A stretch of 55,858 nucleotides of DNA from an uncultured Bacteroidales bacterium. GTDB taxonomy: Bacteria > Bacteroidota > Bacteroidia > Bacteroidales > Marinilabiliaceae. The translations under genes and the position numbers were made by a program. This document shows, piece after piece, positions 10,055-13,446 of this stretch. Every line of letters begins with the position of its first letter. Within the stretch, counting starts at the first letter, position 1. The notes beneath the pieces are model-generated. The model saw only the letters and a list, made by a program, of their open reading frames with translations. It made no database searches and had not been told where the DNA came from. Where the stretch lies: the NCBI GenBank assembly GCA_945607565.1, contig CALYZD010000005.1, positions 1-55,858 of the forward strand, written 5' to 3'.

Positions 10055-11896
10055 ATGATAGAAAAGTCAGCTACCGGCAAGGCGGCCCGCTTGTGGACCG
10101 GCCCGTTTGTGCGCATCTGCCTTGTCAATCTGTTTGTGTTCGTCAACTTTCATGCCCTGCTGCCCACGTTCCCGTTCTTTGTGAGGCACTTGGGCGGCGA
10201 TACCGTGGCCATAGGCGTGGCCACGGCGCTCTTCAGCCTTGCGTCGATAGTGTCGCGCCCGTTTGTGGGGTGGATGGTCGACACTCGCGGCCGGTGCGCC
10301 ATTCTGGTGGCGGGCCTTGCGGGCATGGTCATGGCTCCGGCGAGCTATTGCGTGTCGGCGGGCATGGCTCTGGCCGTGGTGCTGCGCACGGCTCACGGCG
10401 TATTCCATGCGGCGGCAAGCAATTCGGCCTCGACGTGGGTGACCGACATTGTGCCGCCGAGCCGCATGGGCGAGGGTCTGGGAATGTTCGGGCTGTCGAT
10501 GGCCATATCCACGGCGCTGGCTCCGGCCATAGGCCTGACGCTGATGAACGCCTGCGGCTTTGTGCCGCTGTTTGCGCTCACGTCGGCCGTGGCGGTGGCG
10601 GCGCTTGCGGTGGGTGTGGGCATCAGGCCTCGCGGCTATTCGCTTGCGACGTCGCCGCTGAGCATTCGCGGGCTGTTCGAGCCCATGTCGGCGCCGGCGG
10701 CCGTCACGCAGTTCTTCTTCATGATGGCCTATGGCGTGGTCGAGGTCTATGTGGCCATCTATGCAGCCACGTGCGGGCTGCCTGGCGGCGGCGTCTACTT
10801 TGTGTTCATAGCCGTGGCCACGGTGGCCACGCGCTTTGCGCTGGGGCGCGCCATCGACCGCCGTGGCGAGGCGAGGCTGGTCTATGCGGGCAATGCCGCC
10901 ATTGTGGGCAGCATAGTGCTGCTGGTGTGCGCCCACAACGTGCCGTGCTATCTGCTGTCGGCCGTGCTGCTGGGCTTCAGCTTCGGGGCCATTCAGCCGT
11001 CGCTGCAGACCATGGCCATGCACGCCGTGCCGCCTCACCGTCGCGGTGCGGCCAACTCCACGTTCTTCGTGGCCTTCGACTCGGGCCTGGCGCTGGGCGG
11101 CTTTGCGGCCGGCGTGCTGATAGAGCGCATCGGGTTCGACGCCATGTTTCTGTGCATGATTGTGCCCTGCGCGCTGTCGACGGCATACTATTATATATAC
11201 GGACGCCGCCATCCGTCGTCGTTCAACCCGAGCTCGCGCACCGCCGCTCAGCCTGCGGCCGCGCCGACGCCCGCCACTGCCGACGCGCCGCTGGTGGTGA
11301 CCATATCGCGCGAGTATGGCAGCGGCGGCCACCGCATAGGCCAGATGCTGGCCCACCGGCTGGGCATAGCCTTCTACGACCGCGAGCTGATAGACCTCAC
11401 CGCGCAGCAGAGCGGCCTGGACCACGAGCAGGTGACCGGCAGCGAGCAGACCGTGGACGCGCGCCTGGCGTGCGACAATCCGGTGCAGACCGACGTCTAT
11501 CTGGCCCAGAGCCGGATAATAGCTCGGCTGGCCGCGCAGGGTCCGTGCGTAATAGTGGGCCGGCTGGCCAACTTCGTGCTGCGCGGGCGCCCCAACCGCT
11601 TCGACGTGTTCGTGTATGCCGACGCCAACGTCCGCGCCCGGCGGATAGCCGCGACCTGCGGCGTGGACGCCGACCGTGCGGCACAGATGGTGCAGCGCTC
11701 GGACCAGGAGCGGGCCGACCACTGCCTGCACTACACCGGCCGCCACTGGGGCGACCGCCACAGCTACCACCTGATGATAGACACGTCGGCCGTCAGCGAG
11801 AGCGAGGCCGTGGCCATGATAGCGGCGGCCGTGGGGCAGCGCCGGCGGCACGGCGCAAATAATGCTCCGAATGCGGCGCACGATGGTTGCCGATAG
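10055..11896 (+). CDS. MFS transporter fused to cytidylate-kinase-like domain
   Basis: This is a 613-residue two-part protein. Residues about 15-390 are a 12-helix major facilitator transporter with a motif-A-like loop (GWMVDTRGRCAIL) and the usual mid-protein break before RGLFEPMSAP. Residues about 410-605 match the cytidylate-kinase-like family: TISREYGSGGHRIGQ (glycine-rich nucleotide loop, about 417-431), FYDRELIDL, VIVGRLANFVLR, and RADHCLHYTGRHWGD followed by YHLMIDTS near the end. The kinase-like part should be cytoplasmic, after the last helix, joined by an Ala/Pro-rich linker (about 392-411). The transporter sequence resembles drug or metabolite exporters; the substrate is unknown. 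An attenuator-like leader precedes it, and ahcY follows from its own promoter. Confidence 0.85.
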   Translation: MIEKSATGKAARLWTGPFVRICLVNLFVFVNFHALLPTFPFFVRHLGGDTVAIGVATALFSLASIVSRPFVGWMVDTRGRCAILVAGLAGMVMAPASYCVSAGMALAVVLRTAHGVFHAAASNSASTWVTDIVPPSRMGEGLGMFGLSMAISTALAPAIGLTLMNACGFVPLFALTSAVAVAALAVGVGIRPRGYSLATSPLSIRGLFEPMSAPAAVTQFFFMMAYGVVEVYVAIYAATCGLPGGGVYFVFIAVATVATRFALGRAIDRRGEARLVYAGNAAIVGSIVLLVCAHNVPCYLLSAVLLGFSFGAIQPSLQTMAMHAVPPHRRGAANSTFFVAFDSGLALGGFAAGVLIERIGFDAMFLCMIVPCALSTAYYYIYGRRHPSSFNPSSRTAAQPAAAPTPATADAPLVVTISREYGSGGHRIGQMLAHRLGIAFYDRELIDLTAQQSGLDHEQVTGSEQTVDARLACDNPVQTDVYLAQSRIIARLAAQGPCVIVGRLANFVLRGRPNRFDVFVYADANVRARRIAATCGVDADRAAQMVQRSDQERADHCLHYTGRHWGDRHSYHLMIDTSAVSESEAVAMIAAAVGQRRRHGANNAPNAAHDGCR

Positions 11897-12015: not shown

Positions 12016-13446
12016 ATGTTAGAATTTGCCGACCAAACAGTCTACAACTATAAGGTTGCCGATATGTCGCTGGCCGATTTCGGCCGCAAGGAAATAGAGA
12101 TTTCGGAGGTGGAGATGCCCGGCCTGATGGCCCTGCGCAAGCGCTACGCCGGCCAGAAGCCGCTGAAGGGCGCACGCATCACAGGCTCGCTCCACATGAC
12201 CATCCAGACCGCCATCCTGATAGAGACGCTGGTGGAGCTGGGCGCCGACGTGCGCTGGTGCTCGTGCAACATCTACTCCACGCAAGACCATGCCGCGGCA
12301 GCCATAGCGGCCGCCGGAGTGCCCGTGTTCGCATGGAAGGGAGAGTCGCTGGCCGAATACTGGTGGTGCACCATGCGCGCCCTCGACTTCGGCAACGGCC
12401 TTGGCCCCAACCTGATAGTGGACGACGGCGGCGACGCGACCCTGCTGATACACAAAGGCGTGGAGTCGGAACGCAACCCCGAGATGCTGCACGCCGACTA
12501 CAGCAGCTGCGGCGAGGACTTCCGCGAACTGATTGAGCTGCTGTGCACGGTGCGCCCCAACGTGCCCGCCGACTACTGGACACGCATGGCCCAAGGCGTC
12601 AGAGGCGTGAGCGAAGAGACGACCACAGGCGTGCACCGCCTCTACCAGATGATGGAGCGCGGCGAACTGCTGTTCCCGGCCATCAACGTCAACGACTCGG
12701 TGACCAAGAGCAAGTTCGACAACCTCTATGGCTGCCGCGAGAGCCTGGCCGACGGCATCAAGCGCGGCACCGACGTCATGATAGCCGGCAAGGTGGCCGT
12801 GGTCTGCGGATACGGCGACGTGGGCAAAGGCTGTGCCCAGAGCATGAGAGGCTTCGGCGCACGCGTCATAGTGACCGAGATAGACCCCATCTGCGCCCTG
12901 CAGGCCGCCATGGAAGGCTACGAAGTCAAGCGCGTCGAAGACGTGGTGGAGCAGGCCGACATATTCGTGACCACCACGGGCAACTGCGACATAATCACCA
13001 TAGAGCACATGGAGCGCATGAAGGACCAAGCCATAGTGTGCAACATAGGCCACTTCGACAACGAGATTCAGGTCGACAAGCTCGAGAACTACCCCGGCAT
13101 ACGCGAGGTCAACATCAAGCCGCAGGTTGACAAGTTCATCTTCCCCGACGGGCACAGCATCATCCTGCTCAGCCGCGGCCGCCTCGTCAACCTCGGCAAC
13201 GCCACGGGGCACCCCAGCTTTGTGATGAGCAACTCGTTCACCAACCAGACGCTGGCCCAGATGGAGCTCTGGAGCAAGCAGTACGAAGTGGGCGTCTACC
13301 GCCTGCCCAAGCACCTCGACGAGGAAGTGGCGCGCCTGCACCTCGAAAAGCTCAGCGTGCACCTGACCGAGCTGACGCAGAAGCAGGCCGACTACATAGG
13401 CGTGCGCCCCGAAGGGCCCTACAAGGCCGACTTCTACCGCTACTGA
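12016..13446 (+). CDS. ahcY: Adenosylhomocysteinase (S-adenosylhomocysteine hydrolase)
   Basis: The 476-residue product starts at [23 protein letters not shown] (reading the first 12 residues, [12 protein letters not shown], fixes the start); the longer upstream frame has no family similarity. It splits S-adenosylhomocysteine into adenosine and homocysteine, clearing the inhibitor left by methyltransferases. Visible family signatures are [16 protein letters not shown], the [15 protein letters not shown] substrate region, the NAD-binding motif [25 protein letters not shown], and the C-terminal tail ending KADFYRY with the conserved Lys-x-x-x-Tyr-Arg-Tyr. A GC-rich hairpin without a T tail follows the stop. 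Confidence 0.97.

What the first reader, a model, noticed from the sequence alone, without database searches (positions are those of the whole stretch)
10055..11896. MFS transporter fused to a cytidylate-kinase-like domain
A full 12-helix exporter or importer is joined through an Ala/Pro linker to a nucleotide-kinase-like domain that keeps its glycine-rich loop (SREYGSGGHRIG, Ser418-Gly429). Coupling transport to phosphorylation of the cargo, or gating transport by nucleotide, would be notable. ahcY, which produces adenosine, is the next gene, although it has its own promoter.
Basis: partly seen in the sequence, partly recalled or inferred. Interest (0 to 1): 0.6.

Follow-up and report, generated by a model that had tools for sequence, protein, structure and literature searches.

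The report
Transporter fused to kinase-like domain
This gut-type bacterium makes one protein that joins a membrane transporter to a kinase-shaped domain whose family has lost the usual ATP-gripping lysine, and relatives of that domain sit beside or are fused to many unrelated transporters, which suggests a shared, still untested, control module for transport.

Summary
The fusion is real: one 613-aa gene (10055-11896, +) with a complete 12-helix MFS transporter, a floppy Ala/Pro linker and a cytosolic Cytidylate_kin2 domain (PF13189). At least ten orthologous fusions (57-65% identity) exist in other Bacteroidales, so it is no assembly error. The glycine loop is conserved but is not a normal P-loop: in 117 related domains the Walker-A lysine position is never lysine, while an upstream Arg (R419) is nearly invariant. 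The ahcY neighbour is incidental. The main new result is that the same domain recurs with transporters of unlike cargo. It is fused to DUF6198/YczE-type membrane domains. As a separate gene it lies directly downstream of MATE pumps (13 of 29 sampled loci, also in this genome), SLC13 permeases, an amino-acid ABC transporter, the thiamine transporter ThiT and, one small gene away, an RND pump. The MFS-fused domain nests within the DUF6198-fused ones, so the membrane half was swapped. Best reading: a plug-in cytosolic regulatory module, probably ligand-sensing, not a cargo-phosphorylating kinase. Regulation, ligand and cargo are inferred, not shown. New variant of the known MFS plus C-terminal-domain fusions.

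The parts
10055..11896 (+). Whole gene: MFS transporter - Cytidylate_kin2 fusion, 613 aa
10038..10046 (+). GGAGGTGAT, Shine-Dalgarno-like sequence 8 nt before the ATG
   Evidence: read directly from the sequence
10100..11203 (+). 12-helix MFS half (helices between residues 16 and 383; Pfam MFS_1 at 21-348)
11204..11287 (+). Flexible Ala/Pro linker, residues 384-411 (393-411 below pLDDT 50); variable in length and sequence among orthologues
11294..11788 (+). Cytidylate_kin2 (PF13189) domain, residues 414-578
11306..11341 (+). Loop SREYGSGGHRIG (418-429): R419 where Cmk has the first Gly of the P-loop, G425 where it has the Walker-A Lys, H426 where it has Ser/Thr
12016..13446 (+). ahcY, next gene; 119 bp after the fusion gene; not a conserved neighbour, not part of the system

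Best explanation
The protein is a DHA1-like MFS transporter, probably an exporter, that carries a cytosolic Cytidylate_kin2 domain on a flexible tether. The domain belongs to a family that works as an interchangeable accessory of membrane transporters. It is either fused to the transporter or made as a small protein from the next gene in the operon, and it most likely tunes transport by binding a nucleotide or nucleotide-like metabolite, as PII, CBS or UspA modules do or are thought to do. Shown by computation: the fusion and its conservation, an NMP-kinase fold with an altered P-loop, predicted cytosolic placement, and recurrent association with unrelated transporters. Inferred: that it binds a nucleotide, that it regulates rather than catalyses, and the direction of transport.
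For: (1) Fused to MFS and, in a separate architecture, to DUF6198/YczE-like membrane domains. (2) As a separate gene it lies directly downstream, same strand, of MATE pumps in 13 of 29 sampled Bacteroidales loci (chance expectation about 0.1) and in this same genome, of a MATE pump in Roseburia, SLC13 permeases in Lachnospira eligens and Ruminococcus albus, an amino-acid ABC transporter in Treponema and ThiT in Subdoligranulum; in Fusobacterium it follows an RND pump and a PG0541-like small gene. (3) The tree of the domain puts all fused forms in one clade (100/99), with the MFS-fused clade nested among DUF6198-fused ones and a second MFS fusion (L092) elsewhere: the membrane half was swapped while the kinase-like half stayed. 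(4) The Walker-A Lys is absent from all 117 domains, yet R419 (116/117) and G422 (117/117) are kept, so the site is constrained but is not a standard ATP site. (5) A close relative (L044, about 70% identical MFS) nests inside the fused clade without the domain, as expected of a dispensable accessory.
Against: No binding, activity or transport data. Conserved polar residues (R419, D442, R503, R553, H559, Y560) could equally be an unusual active site. Many stand-alone copies have no transporter next to them (L128, L131, L143, L149 and others). The MATE linkage is partly one inherited operon, so independent events are fewer than loci. A long flexible linker suggests tethering more than rigid allosteric coupling.
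Confidence: 0.55

Rival explanations
1. Cargo kinase: the domain phosphorylates the transported molecule at the inner face of the membrane, trapping it inside or tagging it for export.
For: NMP-kinase fold, Z about 14-17 to CMP kinases; several acceptor-side residues such as R503 and R527 align with Cmk Arg residues; strong conservation of the pocket.
Against: Walker-A Lys and Ser/Thr replaced in the whole family; partner transporters carry chemically unlike cargo and include exporters; the MFS half exists without the domain.
Confidence: 0.15
2. Signal or metabolic enzyme tethered to the membrane: the domain makes or consumes a small nucleotide, or a phosphorylated metabolite, with unusual chemistry (an Arg in place of the Lys), and transporters are only its anchor or share its pathway.
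For: Conserved R419, G422, D442, R503, H559 and Y560 look like an active site; many stand-alone copies without a transporter neighbour.
Against: Recurrent placement with many transporter classes is hard to explain for a general enzyme.
Confidence: 0.2
3. Passenger: the fusion is selectively neutral or serves only stability or placement of the transporter.
For: Rare and patchy (1 of 71 genomes of the family); domain lost or absent in L044, L045, L048 and L060 (60-type MFS locus).
Against: The kinase-like half keeps 45-55% identity and invariant motifs across deep divergence, and was kept through a change of membrane partner.
Confidence: 0.1

Closest known systems
Cytidylate_kin2 (PF13189) proteins of known structure: 3hdt (Clostridium symbiosum), 3fdi (Eubacterium ventriosum)
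   Same: Same Pfam family, same fold (Z 24.3 and 23.0), same REYGSGG/REFGSGG loop
   Different: Deposited as single-domain chains of 223 and 201 residues with no function assigned; not fused to a transporter
(d)CMP kinase (Cmk, PF02224 / TIGR02173)
   Same: NMP-kinase fold, Z about 14-17; several acceptor-side residues align
   Different: Cmk has GxxxxGK[ST]; this family has RxxxxGG[HR]; far below the curated cut-off for (d)CMP kinase
MFS transporters with C-terminal soluble domains (CBS, cNMP-binding, PAS, UspA; reviewed in PMC10710835, which cites Willson et al. 2019, not held here)
   Same: A soluble domain added at the C terminus of an MFS transporter; UspA is likewise found fused or in the transporter's operon
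   Different: This kinase-like domain is not among the examples named in the passages read; whether Willson et al. 2019 listed it could not be checked
DUF6198/YczE-Cytidylate_kin2 fusions of Bacteroidales
   Same: Same C-terminal domain, closest relatives in the tree
   Different: Membrane half is a shorter YczE/YitT-like domain instead of MFS
Transporter-associated small regulators: PII proteins such as SbtB, and the PG0541 family
   Same: Small cytosolic partner encoded beside or acting on transporters; a PG0541-like gene lies next to this domain in Fusobacterium
   Different: Different fold; SbtB-type regulation is reported from experiment (PMC10710835), here it is inferred

Membership tests
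Major Facilitator Superfamily (MFS_1, PF07690) | Profile match above gathering score | tested here: met
   176.5 bits vs 33.4
Major Facilitator Superfamily (MFS_1, PF07690) | 12-helix MFS fold, both ends cytosolic | tested here: met
   Model and fold matches, Z about 40 to VMAT, VAChT and NorA; K+R 18 in predicted inside loops vs 2 outside
DHA1-type exporters | Drug/H+ antiport activity | not testable with these tools
   Only similarity to NorA and VMAT
Cytidylate_kin2 (PF13189) | Profile match above gathering score | tested here: met
   166.8 bits vs 28
Cytidylate_kin2 (PF13189) | Family loop R-x-x-G with the fold of 3hdt/3fdi | tested here: met
(d)CMP kinase (Cmk) | Walker A GxxxxGK[ST] | tested here: not met
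   R419...G424-G425-H426 aligned ungapped with Cmk G...GK[ST]; no Lys at that position in 117 domains
(d)CMP kinase (Cmk) | Curated equivalog cut-off TIGR02173 | tested here: not met
   37.4 bits vs 102.1
MFS transporters with a C-terminal regulatory domain | Soluble domain fused after the last helix in a conserved protein | tested here: met
MFS transporters with a C-terminal regulatory domain | Ligand-dependent change in transport | not testable with these tools
   Needs biochemistry

The most novel reading that the evidence does not exclude
Cytidylate_kin2 is a widespread, previously unrecognised family of transporter regulators: an NMP-kinase fold turned into a ligand sensor with an arginine-based phosphate loop, plugged by fusion or operon into MFS, DUF6198, MATE, SLC13, ABC, ECF and perhaps RND transporters in Bacteroidota, Clostridia, Spirochaetes and Fusobacteria.
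Probability: 0.42. Interest if true: 0.75.

Novelty: new variant of a known kind. Interest (0 to 1): 0.55.

Why it matters
Direct, post-translational control of bacterial transporters is poorly mapped, and MFS fusions with domains of unknown role are a recognised gap (PMC10710835). If this module is a general nucleotide sensor for exporters and importers, it would tie drug export and nutrient import in gut bacteria to the cell's energy or nucleotide state, and it would give a function to a large family now named only by resemblance to cytidylate kinase.

Tried and rejected
Assembly artefact: rejected by ten orthologues. A functional link to ahcY: no relative of it in the other fusion loci. A purine-nucleoside transporter: only 21.1 bits to PunC against a cut-off of 430. 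A canonical P-loop kinase: loop residues not met. Open frames on the minus strand and in other frames over the gene are the usual by-product of G+C-rich coding sequence. Literature: no paper found on this fusion, or on PF13189 with transporters, beyond one expression table. Plasmid tblastn found no full-length fusion. The whole-model fold search listed only MFS rows, so the kinase-like domain was folded and searched alone. L178 looked like a second example of the L092-type fusion but is the L037 gene again. The test of a single MFS-fusion clade did not finish.

Full report
Observation. The window holds one uninterrupted 613-codon gene at 10055-11896 on the + strand, with a GGAGGTGAT sequence 8 nt before its ATG. 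Pfam finds MFS_1 at residues 21-348 (176.5 bits) and Cytidylate_kin2, PF13189, at 414-578 (166.8 bits), both far above their cut-offs.

Not an artefact. A pattern scan of genome contigs returned full-length fusions at 57-65% identity from Millionella massiliensis (a 2.9 Mb contig) and from several Bacteroidales MAGs. One further orthologue turned up in a family-wide search (L088). The fusion is nevertheless rare: 1 of 71 genomes of the window's family, 1 of 393 sampled from its order, 2 of 399 in a second family and 1 of 200 in a third.

Anatomy. AlphaFold2 on the orthologue alignment gives a 12-helix MFS half and a separate alpha/beta domain, with residues 393-411 below pLDDT 50. The MFS half matches VMAT, VAChT and NorA, which points to a DHA1-like exporter, but cargo and direction are unknown. 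Positive charges put the C terminus in the cytosol: 18 K+R in predicted inside loops against 2 outside. The kinase-like domain alone folds well (pLDDT 86). Its best matches are the two solved members of its own family, 3hdt (Z 24.3) and 3fdi (Z 23.0), followed by CMP kinases at Z about 14-17.

The altered P-loop. Profile alignments place SREYGSGGHRIG ungapped on the Cmk Walker A. R419 takes the place of the first Gly, G425 the place of the Lys and H426 the place of the Ser/Thr. Across 117 distinct related domains collected here the Lys position is never Lys, R419 is Arg in 116 and G422 is Gly in 117. So the loop is strongly conserved, but it is a family-specific loop and not a canonical nucleotide-kinase loop. 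The protein falls far below the curated (d)CMP kinase cut-off (37.4 vs 102.1 bits).

The domain travels with transporters. Other open frames with this domain proved to be DUF6198/YczE-type membrane proteins with the same C-terminal domain. Stand-alone copies in Bacteroidales often start a few bases after a MATE transporter gene on the same strand: 13 of 29 loci in an order-wide sample (MATE identity by Pfam). The window's own genome has such a pair too, a 223-aa copy after a MATE gene (L058). With about ten MatE domain hits per genome, roughly 0.1 such neighbours would be expected. That figure ignores relatedness; the 13 loci come from about eight families. In plasmid-collection records the copy follows a MATE gene in Roseburia, an SLC13 permease in Lachnospira/Eubacterium eligens and Ruminococcus albus, an amino-acid ABC transporter in Treponema and ThiT in Subdoligranulum. 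In Fusobacterium vincentii it follows an RND pump and a small gene that weakly resembles the PG0541 transporter-associated family (35.7 bits, below its cut-off of 45). In F. nucleatum a cytidylate-kinase-like gene is listed among induced genes together with an RND permease of neighbouring locus number (PMC9848294). About half of the sampled stand-alone copies have no such neighbour.

Evolution. In a maximum-likelihood tree of 71 domains all fused forms make one clade (100/99). The main MFS-fused clade (100/98) is nested among DUF6198-fused domains, and the lone distant MFS fusion L092 (about 28% identical overall) groups with a DUF6198 form, so the tree needs two changes for the MFS label. The membrane half seems to have been exchanged while the kinase-like half was kept. 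Close relatives of the MFS half without the domain exist (L044, L045, L048, L060); L044 lies inside a supported clade of fused proteins, which indicates at least one loss or a second gain. The L044 gene ends in a stop right after the MFS part, with no kinase-like remnant seen in the frame shown.

Interpretation. A domain that follows transporters of drugs, amino acids, thiamine and SLC13 substrates, by fusion or by operon, is more likely a common regulator than an enzyme for each cargo. The loss of the Walker-A Lys fits a sensor better than a phosphotransferase. The precedent is strong in kind: MFS transporters carry C-terminal CBS, cNMP-binding, PAS and UspA domains, and UspA also occurs in transporter operons (PMC10710835). 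What is new here, as far as the held literature shows, is this domain, its altered loop and the breadth of its transporter partners. The claim of regulation is inference; the ligand, the cargo and the direction of control are unknown.

The suggestion of nucleotide gating survives as the leading idea. Cargo phosphorylation is disfavoured, and the ahcY link fails because no relative of the window's ahcY was found in the other fusion loci.

Noticed in passing
L058:2214-4307 (own genome, G000:C19): The window's genome also carries a MATE gene followed at once by a stand-alone Cytidylate_kin2 gene, so the organism has both the operon form and the fused form.
   Followed up: yes
L092 (G797:C1:1967612-1969453): A very divergent second MFS + Cytidylate_kin2 fusion (about 28% identical) in one genome; probably an independent fusion.
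   Followed up: partly
L168:2-3579: Fusobacterium vincentii: RND permease, PG0541-like small protein and Cytidylate_kin2 in a row.
   Followed up: partly
L143, L144, L149: Stand-alone Cytidylate_kin2 genes lie beside a gene that reads like a Ppx/GppA phosphatase (judged from sequence, not scanned).
   Followed up: no
L128, L136: Stand-alone copies follow a gene that reads like acetylglutamate kinase (argB), not a transporter (judged from sequence, not scanned).
   Followed up: no
L043:1181-2967: This fusion gene is split over two frames (frameshift in the MFS part): either a sequencing error in the MAG or a broken gene.
   Followed up: no
L077: A PF13189 match that keeps GELGSGKTT, a canonical P-loop, unlike the rest; possibly a link between Cmk and the altered family.
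   Followed up: no
L041: A MAG labelled Akkermansiaceae carries a fusion that groups with those of Bacteroidales; the label or the binning is probably wrong.
   Followed up: no
L003/L059 (G000:C78): A second stand-alone subfamily (about 237 aa, SR[EQ]YGC loop with an insertion) is common in Bacteroidota and showed no MATE neighbour in the loci examined.
   Followed up: partly
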